Positions 7,868 to 57,358 of a DNA stretch of 64,000 nucleotides are shown here, in pieces. Origin of the DNA: Lachnospiraceae bacterium. GTDB lineage: Bacteria; Bacillota; Clostridia; Lachnospirales; Lachnospiraceae. The stretch spans positions 1 through 64,000 of the forward strand of contig CAJTDN010000018.1 in assembly GCA_910574865.1 (NCBI GenBank), written 5' to 3'. The position numbers and the translations under genes were made by a program. The notes beneath the pieces are model-generated. The model was not told the origin of the DNA and made no database searches. It was given only the letters and a program-made list of their open reading frames with translations. Positions within the stretch are counted from its first letter, which is position 1; every line of letters starts with the position of its first letter.

Positions 7868-7895
7868 TCTAACGCACTCCTTCCATGCTCAATCC

Positions 7896-7991
7896 CCATT
7901 TTATATTTTGGCCCGCTTCCTATTTCTTGTTTTGGCCCGCTTCCTATTTCTTGTTTTGGCTCGCTTCCTATTTCTTATTTTGGCTTGCTTC
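7896..7991. repeat. Four 24-bp tandem repeats across the TPI stop codon
   Basis: Units at 7896-7919, 7920-7943, 7944-7967 and 7968-7991. On the minus strand each reads GAAGC(A/G)(A/G)GCCAAAA followed by T or C and AAGAAATAG, degenerating in the copy nearest larA. The first unit encodes the last seven residues plus stop of the upstream TPI-like gene. The array is therefore a tandem copy of a gene's 3' end including its stop codon. Confidence 0.92.
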
Positions 7992-17572: not shown

Positions 17573-17671
17573 GCCCGTTCCCTTTCCATATTTTACACGT
17601 TCTACCTATAAATATCCTTTAAGGTATACCATTTTACCACTTTTTTCACAAGCCGTTTTCAACAATGTTGC

Positions 17672-17706
17672 CATTCAGCCCCGCGCCAGTGCGGGCGAAT
17701 TGTAAC
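17672..17706. repeat. GTTACAATTC-type palindromic repeat
   Basis: Imperfect copy: a CATTCAGCCCCGCGCC half and its GCGGGCGAATTGTAAC partner. It abuts the stop codon of the ROK gene. It belongs to the same family as copies at 19618-19659 and 19967-20003. Confidence 0.7.
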
Positions 17707-19570: not shown

Positions 19571-20022
19571 GAAGGCAATGAAATCGTCTTCATTTTCTGG
19601 CTCACGGCCGCCGGTACGTTACAATTCAGCCCCGCGCCAGCGCGGGTCCGAATTGTAACGGGCATCACCCGCATTTTTAGTTTGCCTACGGCAAAGCGGG
19701 TGATGCATCGGCCAGATTTACGTGCATCCTCTCGGCCAATCAGCGTGGTGATTGGCCGGGGACTGAACTGTAACGCCGGTACCATCACTTTATCGGACGG
19801 TGGCCGTATAGCGGTGCCATGTGCCAGCGGCACACGCTTAGCACGGACCGAAACGGAAGCGTAGAAGCGCACGCACCCGTGAATAGTAATCGTCGGCCAC
19901 AATACAAAAAGACACCCCCCGCGGCTCGCTTGCAGAAGATGTCTTTCACCTCGTTTCACTTATTTACAATTCAACGCCGCGCCAGCGCAGGCTGGAGCGT
20001 AACTTCATTTTTTTCGTAATCG
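19571..20022. repeat. Cluster of palindromic repeats in a 450-bp gene-free stretch
   Basis: No gene is seen here. Four inverted repeats are: 19618-19659 (GTTACAATTC ... GAATTGTAAC around a GC-rich stem); 19662-19707 (GCATCACCCGC paired with GCGGGTGATGC); 19733-19759 (CGGCCAATCA with TGATTGGCCG, followed by GGGGACTGAACTGTAAC); and 19967-20003 (degenerate TTACAATTC copy). The third recurs at 49128-49169. Confidence 0.75.
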
Positions 20023-22961: not shown

Positions 22962-23042
22962 TATTTCCATGCCACAATTTTTTCATCTATTCTCCCCAGT
23001 ATAGCCGGGGGATTGGCGTTTTCATTGACTCGGTTGGATACC

Positions 23043-23078
23043 GCTACAATCACGGTCGGTCAGACCGTGGATTGTAAC
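23043..23078. repeat. GTTACAATCAC palindromic repeat (copy 1)
   Basis: GCTACAATCACGGTC and GACCGTGGATTGTAAC flank a 5-base centre. Same family as 25576-25610 and 28027-28061. It overlaps the last codons of the minus-strand Cys-rich gene. Confidence 0.8.
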
Positions 23079-23361
23079 CCTTTTTCCTCGCCAGCTCCAT
23101 AATCTCCCCGTACCGTTCCAGAATCTCCCCATAGTTTTCCTTTTCATGCGGAAAAATGCAGGCCGTGCAATCCTTCACGCCTTTTTCCGTGTATCGGAAA
23201 TTCCCCTCGCACTTTTCCCCTAATGCGTATAACGGGCAATAACAAAAAAGACAGTTGAAATTTTCCTCGTCATCCGTCTGGTGGCAAGGGAAATATTCAC
23301 ATTCCGAATGACGGAAAAATGTATATTTTTTTCTCGCCCGGCTCGCTTTCTTCTCTTCCAC
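23050..23361 (-). CDS. Cysteine-rich small-domain protein
   Basis: 103-residue protein with eight cysteines arranged around HSECEYFPCHQ, NCLFCYCPLY and KDCTACIFPH. This pattern matches the small Cys-rich domain family (PF04071-like) thought to bind zinc and often found with cobamide genes. The start is a GTG with AAAGGGG upstream. The final residues GYNPRSDRP and the stop are encoded by a GTTACAAT palindromic repeat, so the natural C-terminus has been replaced. The domain itself is intact. Confidence 0.8.
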   Translation of the reverse strand: MEEKKASRARKKYTFFRHSECEYFPCHQTDDEENFNCLFCYCPLYALGEKCEGNFRYTEKGVKDCTACIFPHEKENYGEILERYGEIMELARKKGYNPRSDRP

Positions 23362-25492: not shown

Positions 25493-25848
25493 GACACTTG
25501 TTACAATTCGCCCAGAAAATAGACTTAATGAAGACGGAAGTTTGAAGTGGCAATCAGGTGTGTTTTATGGATGCCGTTACAATCACGGCCAGTTAAGCCG
25601 TGATTGTAACCGTGAATCATCACGAAAAAGGGGGCGTTATTATGCCCGACAAGGTGATGGTTTACATGGCATGGCATCTTCATTAAGCCCGTTCTCCACA
25701 CGCAGTTTTTTCAAGTCGTTTTCCAGCACGGCTTTCGTCAGCGCGTCAGAGCCGGTCAGGAGCGACGGCATGAAGGACAATTCCTATCCCATTTTATACA
25801 AAGCGACTCGCAAACGCTTCGTTTGTTGCCCGTATCACCGCTTGAAAC
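25493..25848. other. Gene-free stretch with repeat copies
   Basis: It contains a partial GTTACAATTC repeat (about 25499) and the GTTACAATCAC palindrome at 25576-25610. On the minus strand a short frame (about 25625-25775) reads LLTGSDALTKAVLENDLKKL, which may be a gene remnant but cannot be assigned. Nothing else is evident. Confidence 0.5.
25576..25610. repeat. GTTACAATCAC palindromic repeat (copy 2)
   Basis: GTTACAATCACGGC and GCCGTGATTGTAAC form a perfect 14-bp stem around a 7-base centre. It is preceded by GGATGCC, as in the other copies (GGATACC, AGATACC). Confidence 0.88.
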
Positions 25849-27894: not shown

Positions 27895-28026
27895 TTTATC
27901 CCCCTCACTCACAATAATTTCCAAAACAAATGCGACCTTCTGATTCTAATTATACAAAACAATTCGCGTGTTTACAACAAATATCTCATTAAATTTTAAA
28001 AAGGAGTTTACCGATTACTAGATACC

Positions 28027-28061
28027 GTTACAATCACGGCCGATTAGGCCGTGATTGTAAC
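28027..28061. repeat. GTTACAATCAC palindromic repeat (copy 3)
   Basis: GTTACAATCACGGCC and GGCCGTGATTGTAAC with a 5-base centre (15-bp perfect stem). It abuts the stop codon of the GH3 remnant at 28064. Confidence 0.9.
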
Positions 28062-28063
28062 GG

Positions 28064-30353
28064 TTACCTCGCGTAAAATCCCCTGCTCTTCCCTTCGACC
28101 AAAGCATCTTCTGTAATCTTAAACGCCAGTTCCGCCTTCACGTCATTGGACGTTGCGGCAACTTCCGCCACCATGTCCCCCGCTTCCACCTTCCAGTTCA
28201 TTTCATAATCCAGGAATGCCAGCTGGCTCACGCGGAAGGTCAAGGCCACCGTCTTCGTCTCGCCAGGTTCCAGCGACACTCTGCGAAATCCCACCAACTG
28301 CTTCACCGGCCTGGCAATGCTGCTGGCGACATCCCGCACGTAAATTTGCACGACCTCGTCCCCGGCCATGTCCCCTATGTTGGTTACGTCCACGCTGACG
28401 GTCATGCTGTCGCTTCCTTTGACCTCTTTGGCCGAAATTCCGGCATTGCCGTACTCGAACGTGGTGTAGGAAAGTCCATATCCAAAGTAATACAACGGTG
28501 CCGAATCCACGTCCGTATAGCCGTCCACCATATAAGCCCCCCTGGAATACGAACTCCCGTTCTCATGGTTATAGTAAATGGGAATCTGGGACGACGTGGC
28601 CGCGACGGTGACCGGAAGCTTCCCGCCCGGGTTATAATCGCCGCAAAGGACATCCGCGATGGCGTACCCGCCCAGCATTCCCGGATTCCAGCATTCCAAA
28701 ATGGCGGCCGCCTTTTCCTGGGCGTTTCGGCTGGAACACGGACGGCCATCAAAATGCAGCACCACGAGCCTGTCATTGATTTTCGCCAGCCTTCCCACGA
28801 TTTCCTCCTGGATTCCGGGCAGGCCGATATGTGCCGCGTCCATCGTCTCCCCCGTGGTCACGGTGGCCCCCCAGCCATATTTGCCACCCACCGTCGCGAT
28901 TACCACGTCGGCACCGGCCGCCTTTTCATACAATTCCTCCAGTTCCGAACGGTCGTCACCCGTATAATTGTACCCGTGCAGACAAACGACCTCCGCATCC
29001 GGATATTTTTCGTGCAACGCCTCGAACACGGACTTGCTCTGCGGCGCACCCCCGCGCGTGCGCGCCTCAACTTCCGGCAGTTCACATTTTAGTTTCGAAC
29101 CCGAATAATAAGGCCTCTCCGCGTCCACGCTCGCCGTGCTGACGGCTTCCGCCGTGTCCGTCCCCGCCATGGCTCCCGATGAGAAGTCCGCGTACATTTC
29201 CGCGATGGCCGGCCAGGTATACCCGCCGAACAGCTGCCGCACGGAATCCGCATGCGGCCCCACGACCAAAATGCGCTTCACATCCTTTTTCAATGGCAGG
29301 ATGCCATCGTTTTTCAACAATACCAATGATTTCAAAGCGTTTTCCTTGCACAATTCCTGCGTCCTTTCCGTGCGGAACACGTTCGGGAGCATTTCCTTGC
29401 GCGGATAGGGGTTCTCAAACAGCCCCAGTTTGAATTTCGCCGTCAACACGCGCCTGCACGCCATGTCAACCAGTCCCTCGTCCACTTCGCCCGCCTTTAC
29501 CTTCTCCAACAATTCTTCGCCATAACCGATGGGGGTCGGGCATTCGACATCCAGCCCCGCTTTCAGCGCCGCCTCGCCCAGATTCGCCATGTCCGCGTCT
29601 AGGTGGAGCCACCACGGGTTCCCCGTTGATGGTCCCATACGAGTTCATCACGGATTGCAGGTTTCCCTCGGTGATGGCCGCCTGGAACGGGGCCGCGTAA
29701 ACCTCCCACAGCAAACGTTCCGTCACCGGTGCCGATGCCATGTTGATACCGGCCTCGGACGCACCGTAAGCCAGGAAATGCTTCGACGTGGAAATGACGG
29801 AATCCTTCAAATCCTCACCCTGCATCCCGGTCACGAATGCCACGCTCATGGCCGAGGCCAGGCACGGGTCTTCGCCATAGGATTCCCCGACCCTTCCCCA
29901 GCGCGGATCCCTAACGATGTCCATGACGGGAGCCAGTGCCTGGCGCACGCCCACGGCCACGAACTGGTCTTTCGCCACCGCCGCCATGTCGCGCACGCTT
30001 TGCGGATCCCAGGTCGCCGCCTGCCCGACGGCGGTCTGGAACACGTCCGCCTGCGGAATGACTGCACCAGTCAACGCCTCGCAATGGATAATGGCGGGAA
30101 TGCCGAAACGGCTGCTCGACACGACATGCCGCTGGACGCGTTCCATGTCTTCCACCATTTTCCCGGCATCCTCCGCCTCATAGAACAACGTCCCCAGATG
30201 GCCAATGCCGTTCGTCACCTTTTTCTCCGCCTCGTACACGTAACAACACTGTAACTGGGCGAATTTTTCCTCCACCGTCATCAGATGCAAAAGCGCGTCC
30301 GCCCTCTCCTCCGCCGACAACGTGGTATCCTGGTATCTCTGCTTTTCTTCCAT
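28064..30353 (-). pseudogene. Second GH3 glucosidase/xylosidase, catalytic nucleophile deleted
   Basis: The 5' part (MEEKQRYQDTTLSAEERADA) runs through PVMDIVRDPRWGRVGESYGED and the KHFLAYGASE motif to NSYGTINGEPVV. The frame then shifts, near 29605-29620, into DADMANLGEAALKAGLDVEC. The intervening stretch should hold the nucleophile aspartate (usually in a VVSDY-type motif), so about 40-45 residues including the nucleophile are lost. The remaining (alpha/beta)6 and fibronectin-like domains are intact to the end. It is followed upstream by GH2, GH78 and Rpn remnants, and a GTTACAAT repeat lies at its stop. Confidence 0.87.
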
Positions 30354-33783: not shown

Positions 33784-33875
33784 GTTATATCAGATGTAAA
33801 ATGACTCCCGCCTCTATGGGCGGTGAGCAACATATTTGTATCAGTGTCGGATTCAATCCCCATCTGATATGCCTC
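33784..33875 (-). mobile_element. IS200/IS605-like right-end sequence
   Basis: A ~92-bp sequence just downstream of the TnpB remnant, with a hairpin (CACCGCC ... GAGGCGG) typical of IS605-type ends. It matches 46787-46882 at nearly every position. In TnpB elements this region also encodes the omega/guide RNA scaffold, so both copies may be scaffold relics. Confidence 0.6.
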
Positions 33876-34056: not shown

Positions 34057-34254
34057 ATGATACCAGGGTCAAAAGGCCATGTATGACATGCTTGCATGTC
34101 AATACATGACTTTGAGACCCGCAAAACACCGAAAAGTAGCCATTTCCCGTAAGAAAATGAGCGGATTTGAGGTGTTTTAGAGTTGCGGGAGCACGTAGTG
34201 CGGAGCAACTCGTGGGTATCATGGGGGCAAAATGTATTTTGACCCCAACATCAT
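34057..34254. mobile_element. 198-bp element with imperfect terminal inverted repeats
   Basis: ATGAT-N4-GGGTCAAAA at 34057-34074 is matched in inverted form at 34237-34254 (only the 4-base centre differs). It has no coding capacity and separates the TnpB remnant from upstream DNA. It is MITE-like in layout; no target duplication could be confirmed. Confidence 0.5.
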
Positions 34255-34276
34255 GTCATAAGTATATCATAAACCG

Positions 34277-34555
34277 TTAGCGTCGGTGTACGGAGGGCAA
34301 CACGCCTCAGCCCATGTGATTTCAAGGGTTTTCAGCGTCATCTTCAATCGGCGTACGTCCTTGTACGCCTCATTCATCTTCCTTGAAAACCCTTGAAATC
34401 CCTATGGGTGAGGTCGCAGAGTCGTGAAGAGACATATTCCCCCCTTTCAAGGCACTTGAGCGACGCGTACAAGGACGTACGCGGAGTGAAAGTAACGACG
34501 AAAGGGGGGAAATATGCCCTTCATCGACCGTGTTGCCTTCTGTACACCGATGCTA
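34277..34555 (-). repeat. Twin-hairpin element, copy 1
   Basis: ~279 bp bounded by inverted termini TTAGCGTCGGTGTAC and a near-complement at 34541-34555. It holds two long hairpins: GATTTCAAGGGTTTTC pairing with its complement (apical loop GTCCTT at 34357-34362), and a CCCCCTTTC/GAAAGGGGGG-type hairpin (loop AAGGAC at 34471-34476). The two loops are mutually complementary. It is inverted relative to copy 2 at 36356-36635. No coding capacity. Confidence 0.85.
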
Positions 34556-34790
34556 CTTTTGGCTTTTCGATCACGATTCCACCCGCCCCAGGCCTTCACA
34601 CTCCCTGCATCTTCTGTGACTTTCGTACCTTCTGCACTCCTTTTTTCATTCCCATTCATTCTCCTCCTTTTGTGCCATGGCAGGAGAATTCACCCGTCTC
34701 AGAACCTCCTGCTTTTGTAAAAACGGTGTTTTAAAAGCATGGATTTTCTGTCATCTTCCACGACGGCCGCGTTTATCATCTTACCGTTCC

Positions 34791-35303
34791 TTATAGTACC
34801 AGCGACGGGGCGGAATATACCCTGCCCCCCAGCTCGCTGTCCAACATGTACAATGCCCGCGCGTCAAAACCGTACAATTCGAACTTCTTGACCATGTCCT
34901 CCGCGTTCGTCTCTTCCTCGCCCTGCTCCTTGACGAACCAGTCCAAAAACTGCATGGTCCGAAAATCCTTCACCTCATGCGCCGCCTCGTAAATATTATG
35001 AATCAAGCCTGTCACGTACTGCTCGTGCTCGTACCCGGCCTTCAGCGGATCCGCATATTCCTTCAATTCCTTGTCGGGCTTCGCGACGGCTCCCAACGAC
35101 ACCTTGCAGCCGTTGTTTTGCAAATACTTCAAGAACAGCATCGCGTGGTCACGCTCCTCCTGGGCCTGCACAAAATACCAATTGGCAAATCCCTTCAAGG
35201 CCTGCTCCTCATAATATATCGCAAAATCAAGATATAAATACGCGGAATAAAGTTCCTTGTTGATTTGGTCGTTTAGCAATTCCGCCACTTTTGTGTTTAA
35301 CAT
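34791..35303 (-). CDS. ftnA: Ferritin
   Basis: Non-haem ferritin of 170 residues, oxidising and storing iron in a 24-subunit shell. Ferroxidase-site residues are visible in NKELYSAYLYL (Glu), AQEERDHAM (Glu, His) and FVKEQGEEE. Start at 35303 (MLNTKVAELLNDQ) with GGAGG upstream; the frame is open nine codons more. It is flanked, with the lipoprotein gene, by inverted twin-hairpin repeats. Confidence 0.95.
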   Translation of the reverse strand: MLNTKVAELLNDQINKELYSAYLYLDFAIYYEEQALKGFANWYFVQAQEERDHAMLFLKYLQNNGCKVSLGAVAKPDKELKEYADPLKAGYEHEQYVTGLIHNIYEAAHEVKDFRTMQFLDWFVKEQGEEETNAEDMVKKFELYGFDARALYMLDSELGGRVYSAPSLVL

Positions 35304-35462
35304 ATGTATGTTCCTCCATTTTCTCTGCATTTTTCCCAGTCATTATATCTCCATGTCGGGACAATTGCAATCCCCGTCACTTATTTTTCACAGATGACAA
35401 CGTACCAATTATAACGAAACAACTGGCAAATGTGCAAAAAACATCCCACCGCCCGTTAACCG

Positions 35463-35508
35463 TACTTCTGAATCGAACCATTCAATACTTCTGAATCGAA
35501 CCAATTAA
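35463..35508. repeat. 23-bp tandem duplication across a stop codon
   Basis: TACTTCTGAATCGAACCA plus 5 bases occurs at 35463-35485 and 35486-35508. The second copy contains the last codons and stop of the minus-strand lipoprotein gene. It is the same pattern as the array at the TPI gene. Confidence 0.85.
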
Positions 35509-36291
35509 TTCTTCCACCTTCGCCGACTGTTCTGGCAAATATGTAATCGTAATAAGTGCCGCGTGGCCGTCCTTCACGCGCATGTACATGTCAATATTCG
35601 CACTAATTCCCTGCACGGCCGTCGTAATCGGCATCTTCGTGTAAGTGGTTCCCGCGATTTCCACCTCGGACGTGTCACCAAAATTCATCTCCATGCCATC
35701 CGCGAGACCGCCTGACATTCCTTGCTTTGAAAGCATGAAAAACTGGTCGGCCGTCATGTTCGCCAGCGGAAGTTTCTGCACCGCGATGCTAATGTTCATC
35801 CTGCCGCCGTCACTTACGCATACCGCCATCAGCTCCGGCTCAATTGCAACCGAGGCCGCCACCTCGCCGTATTTCTCTTGTGCCTCTTCCGACATGATCA
35901 AGTCCGCTCCCACTTCCCGGGCCTGCTCAAATTCTTCCTGCGTCGCCACCACGTAATCGTCCGAAAGGCTCAGCCGGATTCCCAGCCATTTGCTTTCGTA
36001 AACATTTCCGTTCACGGTACCCCGCTCATAGGATTCCCCATCCCGAACGGCATCGTCTTGCCCCTGGTTCCGGACCTCCTCCGTCGCCTGCTTTTTGCCG
36101 TCTTCACCACCGGCCAGCCCATCCTCTTCCTGCCCGCGTTCATCCTCCCGCCGGGATTCTTGCCCCCCACCTTGCTCCGGTTCCTTCTTCAAGCCCCTTG
36201 GCACGGCAGAAGAGCACGCCGTCAATGTAAACGCCAACAGCGCAAGCGCCACGCATAAAATTTTAGTCGCCTTTGATTTTCTTAATTTCAT
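35482..36291 (-). CDS. Putative lipoprotein
   Basis: 269 residues. Start at 36291 (MKLRKSKATKILCV) after GGGAGG. A type II signal peptide with lipobox LTAC is followed by a long, highly charged linker rich in Glu, Gln, Gly and Arg (about 35-90). A globular C-terminal domain follows (from about NVYESKWLGIRLSLSDDY), ending AALITITYLPEQSAKVEELI. It is surface-anchored and probably monomer- or membrane-associated; the fold resembles small PsbP-like or DUF-type extracytoplasmic domains, but this is not certain. Function unknown. It is in the same direction as ferritin, about 180 bases upstream. Confidence 0.75.
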   Translation of the reverse strand: MKLRKSKATKILCVALALLAFTLTACSSAVPRGLKKEPEQGGGQESRREDERGQEEDGLAGGEDGKKQATEEVRNQGQDDAVRDGESYERGTVNGNVYESKWLGIRLSLSDDYVVATQEEFEQAREVGADLIMSEEAQEKYGEVAASVAIEPELMAVCVSDGGRMNISIAVQKLPLANMTADQFFMLSKQGMSGGLADGMEMNFGDTSEVEIAGTTYTKMPITTAVQGISANIDMYMRVKDGHAALITITYLPEQSAKVEELIGSIQKY

Positions 36292-36355
36292 GTTCCACAT
36301 CCTCCCGTCTTGACCATTTCAGCCCTGGCCATGTCTTGTTCCCCAATCATGATGT

Positions 36356-36635
36356 TAGCGTCGGTGTACAGTAGGCAACACGGTCGATGAAGGGCATATT
36401 TCCCCTCTTTCATCGTTACTTTCCCTCCGCGTACGTCCTTGTACGCGTCGCTTAAGTGCCTTGAAAGAGGGGAAATATGCCTCTTCACGACTCTACGACC
36501 TCACCCATAGGGATTTCAAGGGTTTTCAAGGAAGATGAATGAGGCGTACAAGGACGTACGCCGATTGAAGATGACGCTGAAAACCCTTGAAATCACATGG
36601 GTTGAGGCGTGTTGCCCTCCGTGCACCGACGCTAG
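36356..36635 (+). repeat. Twin-hairpin element, copy 2
   Basis: ~280 bp with termini TTAGCGTCGGTGTAC and GTGCACCGACGCTA. First hairpin: CATATTTCCCCTCTTTC pairs with GAAAGAGGGGAAATATG, apical CGCGTAC-GTCCTT-GTACGCG (loop 36436-36441). Second hairpin: GATTTCAAGGGTTTTC with its complement, apical GGCGTAC-AAGGAC-GTACGCC (loop 36551-36556). Just after it a second partial terminus (TAGCGTCGGTGTACAG) follows. No coding capacity. Confidence 0.88.
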
Positions 36636-46812: not shown

Positions 46813-46882
46813 ATCCCGCCACTGATACAAATATGTTGCTCACCGCCTATAGAGGCGAGAGTCATTCCACATCTGACATAAT
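46787..46882 (+). mobile_element. IS605-like end (second copy) overlapping transporter 3' end
   Basis: Matches 33784-33875 (opposite strand) at nearly every position, including the CACCGCC ... GAGGCG hairpin and CATCTGA(C/T)ATA end. No transposase gene is nearby. A right-end or omega-RNA relic, or the reverse: both derived from a common mobile sequence. Confidence 0.6.
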
Positions 46883-49098: not shown

Positions 49099-49127
49099 AA
49101 CACCAGCCAAATTTATTTACATCTCCC

Positions 49128-49169
49128 CGGCCAATCAGCATGCCGGTCGGCCGGGGACTGAATTGTAAT
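49128..49169. repeat. GGCCAATCA/GTTACAATT palindromic repeat
   Basis: CGGCCAATCAGCATGCC and GGTCGGCCG form the stem, followed by GGGGACTGAATTGTAA, matching 19733-19775 at most positions. Confidence 0.75.
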
Positions 49170-49347: not shown

Positions 49348-49476
49348 AAGGCACTTGAGAAACAAGCCAAGGAAGATGAATGAGGCGTACAAGGACGTAC
49401 GCCGATTGAAGGTGACGCTGAAAACCCTTGAAATCACATGGGCCCGGGCGTGTTGCCTTCTGTACACCGACGCTAA
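49348..49476 (+). repeat. Twin-hairpin element, copy 3 (internally deleted)
   Basis: Retains the AAGGCACTTGAG piece of one hairpin, then the second hairpin (apical GGCGTAC-AAGGAC-GTACGCC, loop 49391-49396) and the terminus GTGTTGCCTTCTGTACACC. The first hairpin and one terminus are missing. Confidence 0.8.
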
Positions 49477-57278: not shown

Positions 57279-57322
57279 AATTGGGGAGCATACCTGATTA
57301 GTCATGAACCGTGACTCTTAAG

Positions 57323-57358
57323 CCCCCGGCCAATCACTTAAGCTGGATTGACCGGGGG
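57323..57358 (+). repeat. CCGGCCAATC palindrome
   Basis: CCCCCGGCCAATC pairs with GATTGACCGGGGG (one mismatch). It shares CCGGCCAATCA with the repeats at 19733 and 49128. It is 45 bases after the permease stop and may serve as its terminator though no T-run is present. Confidence 0.65.

What the first reader, a model, noticed from the sequence alone, without database searches (positions are those of the whole stretch)
34277..36635. Twin-hairpin repeat whose two hairpins have complementary six-base loops
Two full ~280-bp copies (34277-34555, 36356-36635) and a truncated one (49348-49476) each have inverted termini (TTAGCGTCGGTGTAC) and two long, different hairpins. The apical loops read GTCCTT in one hairpin and AAGGAC in the other, so an RNA or single-stranded DNA could form a loop-loop contact. 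The loops and their CGTAC/GTACG stems are conserved in all copies while surrounding bases vary. I know of no named element with this architecture. It could be a non-autonomous transposable unit, or a structured RNA.
Basis: partly seen in the sequence, partly recalled or inferred. Interest (0 to 1): 0.75.

Follow-up and report, generated by a model that had tools for sequence, protein, structure and literature searches.

The report
Conserved-core hairpin mobile DNA element
The repeat is a tiny jumping-DNA element that most likely depends on another element's enzyme; it belongs to a family found in many Gram-positive bacteria whose ends differ from host to host while an unusual folded core built on paired G·A mismatches stays the same.

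Summary
The repeat is real: a TA-bounded mobile element of 278-279 bp with at least 37 full-length copies (94-100% identical) in this Lachnospiraceae genome. Its two hairpins are diverged inverted copies of one module, so complementary loops follow by descent; full complementarity holds in only 4 of 9 genomes, so the loop-loop contact is not supported.

The module is the finding. Its 'internal loop' is not open: on the purine strand Watson-Crick pairs alternate with tandem G·A mismatches. Watson-Crick positions covary (one has four pair types, 72 of 72 rows paired) while the G·A pairs persist. The same core sits in single-hairpin elements, mostly 162-164 bp, in many genomes of the phylum and in Streptomyces plasmids. 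Their outer arms are close to unrelated (identity 0.29-0.34, against 0.82-0.86 in the first core bases). In some relatives the termini resemble resident IS630-family transposons, and one copy sits inside an IS630 gene with a TA duplication.

Best reading: an ancient, structure-constrained MITE lineage moved by IS630-type transposases. The core's role is unproven; no partner was found for the window's own termini.

The parts
34278..34555 (+). Full twin-hairpin element, copy A, including the TA at each end (278 bp)
34278..34308 (+). Left TIR arm (TAGCGTCGGTGTAC...), outer stem; approximate inner limit
34525..34555 (+). Right TIR arm of copy A; approximate inner limit
34305..34413 (+). Hairpin 1 of copy A; apical stem-loop 34352-34367, loop GTCCTT
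34417..34527 (+). Hairpin 2 of copy A (approximate limits); apical stem-loop 34466-34481, loop AAGGAC
34325..34394 (+). Core module of hairpin 1 (pyrimidine strand on +; purine strand with tandem G.A on -); R2 81.7 bits
34439..34508 (-). Core module of hairpin 2, inverted (purine strand on +); R2 80.2 bits
36356..36634 (-). Full twin-hairpin element, copy B (279 bp)
36403..36472 (+). Core module (hairpin 2 type) of copy B; R2 73.6 bits
36518..36587 (-). Core module (hairpin 1 type) of copy B; R2 81.7 bits
49368..49476 (-). Truncated copy: one TIR and part of hairpin 1; core match 49359-49428, R2 54.7 bits
36633..36662 (+). Another element end (TAGCGTCGGTGTACAGTACAGACGGCAACC) sharing its TA with the end of copy B

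Best explanation
A miniature inverted-repeat transposable element (MITE). Shown: TIRs, TA at the ends, many dispersed near-identical copies, no transposase gene inside, and a folded core conserved across widely separated bacteria. Shown for relatives with the same core: termini resembling those of resident IS630-family (Tc1/mariner-type) transposons in some genomes, and one insertion with a TA duplication. Inferred: an IS630-type transposase supplied in trans cuts at the TIRs and reinserts the element at TA. Inferred: the core works as a folded single strand. On its purine strand the segment AAGGCGGAGGAATGA-[apical stem-loop]-GATTGACGACAACGC forms a continuous helix of Watson-Crick pairs and tandem G·A pairs, probably of the sheared type (pattern GA-N-GA-NN-GA facing itself). 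I think it most likely acts at the DNA level, as a hairpin extruded in single-stranded or supercoiled DNA that brings the TIRs together or is bound by a protein, because the single-hairpin elements show no preferred orientation relative to genes. The twin form in the window carries two such cores head to head.
For: Copies and TA. Diverged full twins in other genomes: G010 75-77%, G014 73-74%. Covariation in the core: (lower and apical stems), counted on an alignment whose model had left the loop columns unpaired; (53 distinct loops from 87 of 90 rows: positions 7, 10 and 13 Watson-Crick in 53 of 53 each; A·G/G·A at positions 1, 2, 5, 6 in 49, 52, 52, 48 of 53; 647 of 795 cells pair as WC, GU or GA against a shuffled mean of 564, maximum 583). 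Loci not used to build the models: (32 distinct loops; position 5 32/32, position 6 31/32, positions 7 and 10 WC 31/32 each, position 13 32/32; 382 of 480 against shuffled mean 358, maximum 370). Purine strand more stable in 32 of 34 single elements, G-U pairs 129 against 71. Distribution: 40/299, 33/391, 34/398 genomes; Streptomyces plasmids (all ten Streptomyces loci fetched match R1). IS630 link: degenerate IS630 abutting nearly the same terminus as the G299 MITE (18 of 25 bases, first 14 identical), IS630 elements with TIRs and TA, MITE inside an IS630 gene with similar ends (18 of 25 bases), association 10/40 core-positive against 18/259 core-negative genomes, Fisher p = 0.0013. No orientation bias: 11 sense, 14 antisense.
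Against: No IS630 gene in the assembled window genome, and none found with the terminus TAGCGTCGGTGTAC; 28 of 39 genomes tested, most of them core-positive, have no DDE_3 match, and 30 of 40 core-positive genomes of the family sample have none. The IS630 transposons themselves lack the core (the only hit in 19 loci is a MITE inserted in one), so the transposase does not need it. In several genomes that hold both, the ends agree only over the first 4-10 bases (G159, G065) or show no clear match (G213, G301). No IS630 partner was sought for the Streptomyces elements. No experiment bears on RNA versus DNA or on movement.
Confidence: 0.75

Rival explanations
1. The element is mobile, but its core is selected as RNA: transcripts through it fold into a G.A-helix hairpin bound by a host protein or cut by a double-strand RNase, which shapes expression of neighbouring genes or makes insertions tolerable.
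For: Strong covariation and higher stability and G-U content on one strand. Known bacterial MITE transcripts are processed by RNase III (review PMC10969869, section 4.1). The twin form shows one core in the purine orientation whichever way it is transcribed (inference).
Against: No orientation preference relative to genes among 25 single elements between co-directional genes, 11 sense and 14 antisense, with simple ORF calls; no Rfam match over the element at gathering scores; in 34200-34650 the one promoter-like site lies outside the element and no terminator-like site was found.
Confidence: 0.2
2. Ordinary MITE whose long palindrome and compensatory changes come from mutational correction of imperfect palindromes, with no function for the core.
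For: Correction between arms produces compensatory changes without selection (general knowledge). Core conservation is partly ascertained, because the loci were found by their core.
Against: Correction would turn G.A mismatches into Watson-Crick pairs, yet they make up 46% of core cells and persist in the loci not used for the models, while the outer arms have lost nearly all similarity.
Confidence: 0.07
3. Loop-loop (kissing) contact between the two hairpins is the conserved function.
For: Perfect 6/6 complementarity in both window copies.
Against: Only 4 of 9 genomes with twin elements keep full complementarity (one of them with a G-U pair); the other five keep 2-4 contiguous pairs; single-hairpin relatives have no second loop; complementarity is expected because the hairpins are inverted copies.
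Confidence: 0.03
4. REP/REPIN-type palindromes moved by a Y1 (RAYT) transposase.
For: Short palindromic derivatives of 24, 47, 62 and 67 bp share the termini.
Against: TA-flanked TIR elements; a TA duplication and termini like those of DDE_3 (IS630) transposons in relatives.
Confidence: 0.02

Closest known systems
RUP (repeat unit of pneumococcus), an IS630-Spn1-associated MITE
   Same: TA target, TIRs resembling an IS630 transposon, many intergenic copies, insertions into IS transposase genes (passages of PMC2229807)
   Different: RUP is 107 bp; no conserved G.A core is mentioned in the passages I read; the elements here are mostly 162-164 or 276-281 bp with a fixed core. RUP sequence was not compared here.
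CIR elements of Caulobacter and Brucella
   Same: Two long hairpin arms joined by a linker (PMC2229807 passages)
   Different: CIR has no TIR in that table and carries a GANTC motif at a loop; the window element has TIRs and the G.A core
ERIC and Correia/NEMIS elements
   Same: TA-flanked, structured, dispersed MITEs (PMC2229807 passages; PMC10969869 sections)
   Different: Other sequences and sizes; no shared core across unrelated termini and phyla known to me (recall)
REPINs
   Same: Small palindromic repeats in many copies; derivatives down to 24 bp here
   Different: REPINs are tied to Y1 transposases (recalled; only titles and abstract starts seen); here IS630-like ends and TA duplication in relatives

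Membership tests
Bacterial MITE | Short, non-coding, with terminal inverted repeats | tested here: met
   278-279 bp, TIR stem of about 31 bp; no transposase inside
Bacterial MITE | Multiple dispersed copies with unrelated flanks | tested here: met
   at least 37 full-length copies; flanks of the 30 read look unrelated
Bacterial MITE | Target-site duplication | tested here: met
   TA at left end 30/30 and right end 29/30 (ends were located by a pattern that includes TA, one mismatch allowed); in three loci the element shares a TA with another element end (L014, L027; window copy B). No true empty site was found for the window family; for a core relative, the L160 flanks with one TA are as long as the homologous stretch of L171 (30 = 30 nt, compared by eye)
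IS630-type MITE | Termini shared with an IS630-family transposon | tested here: inconclusive
   Met in relatives with the same core (G299, G155; weaker in G015); weak or absent in G159, G065, G213, G301; no partner found for the window's own terminus
IS630-type MITE | TA target duplication | tested here: met
   as above, with the same limits
RUP | 107 bp, homologous sequence to RUP | not tested
   length differs; no RUP sequence was compared
CIR | Two arms with GANTC at a loop and no TIR | tested here: not met
   TIRs present; loops GTCCTT/AAGGAC
Known structured RNA family (Rfam 15) | Match at gathering score | tested here: not met
   none over the element in the window or over the elements in 20 related loci; only matches far below cut-off
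REPIN / RAYT system | Associated Y1 transposase, no TA duplication | not tested
   Y1 genes were not searched; the TA duplication and IS630-like ends in relatives argue against it

The most novel reading that the evidence does not exclude
A single ancient non-coding mobile lineage, of nearly fixed length and with a fixed tandem-G·A helical core, has persisted across Bacillota and Actinomycetota by changing its termini to follow different IS630-type transposases, and it moves or persists by a structure-guided step in which the folded core (single-stranded DNA hairpin or RNA) is specifically recognised. That would be a satellite of transposons defined by structure rather than by its ends.
Probability: 0.35. 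Interest if true: 0.88.

Novelty: new variant of a known kind. Interest (0 to 1): 0.74.

Why it matters
Bacterial MITEs are usually seen as remnants of transposons with no function of their own beyond their ends. Here the opposite pattern holds: the ends turn over while a folded, partly non-Watson-Crick core and a near-constant length are kept across two phyla. If confirmed, it says such elements have a body part under selection, gives a defined structure to probe, and makes the open question of how these elements are mobilised testable with matched transposon-element pairs.

Tried and rejected
Loop-loop contact: rejected on 9 genomes. Known RNA family: no match (the hits are four microRNA-model matches and one snoRNA-model match, far below their cut-offs). 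Transcript-oriented RNA function: no orientation bias, lowered but not excluded. Autonomous copy with the window's own termini: no opposed pair at transposon spacing seen among the 100 listed of 188 places in G000, nor among the listed places of G014, G062 and part of G010; the places of G002 and G061 were not listed; no DDE_3 in G000. Viral contigs: no exact match to one core pattern and one terminus pattern. Phages: no match. Plasmids: no match for two Bacillota elements. The transposase beside the Streptomyces copy in L238 does not look like an IS630 gene by eye and I draw nothing from it. Nine answered literature searches showed, in titles and abstract starts, no description of this core in the open-access library; that is no proof of absence in print. 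Papers: PMC10969869 read in sections 4, 7 and 12; PMC2229807 in passages; others only as listings.

Limits of the counts: one search used 87 of 90 rows (3 dropped for gaps), merged to 53 distinct loops. One search dropped 6 of 45 rows for insertions or gaps; its loci were found with R2, which models the loop pairs, or by blastn, so they are new sequences but not free of ascertainment. In one search only boundaries giving 150-172 bp were accepted (44 bounded, 38 distinct, 36 used), several called boundaries lie 3 bases inside the true end, and elements were aligned on their best match to the core, which raises core identity. The unrestricted automatic call found a TA-to-TA boundary for 78 of 111 core groups; besides 154-165 it gave 80, 81, 122, 124, 133, 141, 145 and 173 bp for some singles, which I take for inner or outer miscalls. 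The orientation test used a simple ORF caller.

Full report
Observation. The window is contig 18 of a 5.33-Mb genome in 82 contigs. A genome of the same genus (G002) has contigs of the same lengths as a record titled 'uncultured Faecalicatena sp.', and the other named carriers of the terminus are titled Lachnospiraceae bacterium, so I take the host for a Lachnospiraceae bacterium of the phylum Bacillota. The repeat is real: copy A 34278-34555 (+), copy B 36356-36634 (-), 95.7% identical, and a truncated copy 49368-49476. The genome holds at least 37 full-length copies at 94-100% identity; 40 of 141 candidates were scored, so this is a lower bound. The terminus (up to 2 mismatches) matches 188 places against 3 for the reversed pattern. 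Thirty copies read with flanks have TA at the left end in 30 and at the right end in 29. Derivatives of 24, 47, 62 and 67 bp and solitary ends with the same terminus were seen. No ORF of 600 nt or more runs through any of these thirty; 29 could be placed, 17 between co-directional, 8 between divergent and 4 between convergent ORFs by a simple caller that ignores ORFs overlapping the element.

Anatomy. The strand folds into a TIR stem carrying two hairpins. Hairpin 2 is an inverted homologue of hairpin 1 (59 nt, 78%), so their loops are complementary by descent. In twins from nine genomes the loops pair fully in four (G000, G014, G065, and G094 with a G-U) and not in five (G010, L090, G163, G260, G333: 2-4 contiguous pairs). 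Hairpin-1 cores are 0.81 identical across genomes, hairpin-2 cores 0.86, but the two types only 0.64 within one element, so the twin arrangement is probably old, or has spread as a unit.

The core module. A blast of the element in relatives hit only its middle in G003, G007 and G008 (and its middle plus end fragments in G001), inside a different, single-hairpin repeat with a terminus of the type TAAGGAACTGT. A covariance model of the core (R1; 15 sequences) found it in 40 of 299 genomes of the family, one per genus. Many of the fetched matches are single hairpins with other arms and other termini, often in a CTAG context. A second model (R2) found it in 33 of 391 genomes of the class and 34 of 398 of the phylum, 30 of them outside the class. 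Plasmid records show it in Streptomyces: the query core matched 8 and 15 Streptomyces records, three loci score 51-54.8 bits with R2, and all ten Streptomyces loci fetched match R1. A search with one whole Streptomyces element matched 44 Streptomyces records and one Embleya, not all over the core.

The segment first seen as an internal loop is paired. On the purine strand, counting outward from the apical stem: A·G, G·A, two spacer pairs, A·G, G·A, a Watson-Crick pair, A·G and G·A (or two Watson-Crick pairs), a Watson-Crick pair, C·A, G·A, a Watson-Crick pair, A·G. In 53 distinct loops the positions 7, 10 and 13 are Watson-Crick in 53 of 53 each, with four, three and two pair types; G·A cells make up 46%; WC, GU and GA together 647 of 795 (0.81) against a shuffled mean of 564 (sd 6.3, maximum 583). 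Slid registers reach 0.41-0.62, and the other strand 0.44. The count on 72 distinct rows, aligned with a model that had these columns unpaired, gives (read on the pyrimidine strand) GC 29, UA 28, CG 13, AU 2 and none unpaired at one position, and AU 39, GC 30, UA 1, other 1 at another. Loci not used for the models (class, phylum and Streptomyces) show the same pattern: 382 of 480 against a shuffled mean of 358 (maximum 370). There, however, positions 7 and 10 vary little, position 1 is A·G in only 24 of 32, and a register slid by 3 reaches 0.73 against 0.80, so that set confirms the pattern more than the covariation. The purine strand is the more stable in 32 of 34 single elements and has 129 G-U pairs against 71. 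That the G·A pairs are of the sheared type is inference from known nucleic-acid structure.

Length and ends. Of 44 single elements with a boundary accepted between 150 and 172 bp, all are 154-165 bp and 30 are 162-164 (for miscalls of an unrestricted search see the rejected section). Among 36 with distinct ends, mean pairwise identity is 0.29-0.34 in the outer arms, rising to 0.39-0.53 towards the core, 0.36 at terminal bases 3-14, and 0.82-0.86 in the first 12 bases of the core; alignment on the core favours the last figure. Twins are 276-281 bp where the automatic call is right. One genome can hold two terminus types on the same core: G065 (L092 against L211/L212) and G159 (L200/L203 against L201/L106).

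Mobiliser. G000 has no DDE_3 (IS630) match. In G299, 66 places carry the terminus TAGTACACCGAA; most pair at 162 bp spacing, some at 213 or 60-62 bp. One solitary end abuts a degenerate IS630 gene (DDE_3 E = 7.6e-11); its first 14 bases equal those of the MITE, 18 of 25 in all. IS630-type elements of 1.28 kb with TIRs and terminal TA were read in G159, G213 and G065 (DDE_3; whether their genes are intact was not tested), and a 1.26-kb one with another TIR in G014. In G155 the MITE and the IS630 agree in 18 of 25 terminal bases, and one MITE copy sits inside the IS630 transposase gene; against the relative L171 the flanks differ by the element plus one TA. In G159 and G065 MITE and IS630 ends agree over only 4-10 bases, and in G213 and G301 I saw no clear match. 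IS630 genes occur in 10 of 40 core-positive and 18 of 259 core-negative genomes (p = 0.0013), assuming both calls drew the same 299 genomes and ignoring kinship. In the 19 IS630 loci the core was found once, in the inserted MITE. In G299 an element sits inside another copy, with a six-base TAGTAC extra at one junction that looks like an excision scar.

Mechanism. Shown: TIR-bounded elements at TA, spread, and a constrained structure. Inferred: trans-mobilisation by IS630-type enzymes, in the window family by an enzyme now lost, unassembled or too diverged. Inferred: the core acts as a folded strand. Lack of orientation bias relative to genes (11 sense, 14 antisense of 25) favours DNA over RNA but does not settle it. 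Known comparisons are RUP (IS630, TA, inserted in IS genes) and CIR (two arms) from PMC2229807 passages and the MITE review PMC10969869 (sections 4, 7, 12). Nine answered literature searches listed no paper that, by title or abstract start, describes the core.

Noticed in passing
window 34058-34221 (+): Clostridiales-1 RNA (RF01699, 120.8 bits) ends 56 bp before copy A; another copy of this RNA lies in L117 at 2199-2358.
   Followed up: no
window 17667-17695, 19618-19775, 19963-19991, 49101-49168, 57310-57337; also L053, L055: A second palindromic repeat family (GTTACAATTCAGCCCCGCGC..., GGCCAATCAGCGTGGTGATTGGCC) that looks like a mosaic of hairpin units.
   Followed up: no
window 23037-23080, 25570-25613, 28021-28064: Three copies of a 44-nt palindromic repeat GATACCGTTACAATCACGG...GTAAC.
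   Followed up: no
window 33785-33850 and 46816-46881: A 66-nt inverted pair, 91% complementary, 13 kb apart, one side near a tRNA cluster.
   Followed up: no
window 7895-7990: A 24-bp unit (CCTATTTCTTGTTTTGGCYCGCTT) repeated in tandem.
   Followed up: no
L152, L153, L154 (G299): A 213-bp variant of the 162-bp element with an extra hairpin-forming stretch of about 51 bp inside the core, at three places.
   Followed up: partly
L151 (G299:C22, about 77110-77294): Element inserted in another copy of itself, with an extra TAGTAC at one junction resembling a transposon excision footprint.
   Followed up: partly
L238 (NZ_CP108735.1, Streptomyces sp. NBC_00984) and L237: Core-bearing elements whose apical stem-loop is replaced by a longer or different sequence.
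   Followed up: no
L209, L210 (G301): Two more IS630 loci whose ends begin CTAGTGT/CTAGTAT, like many of the core-bearing elements.
   Followed up: partly
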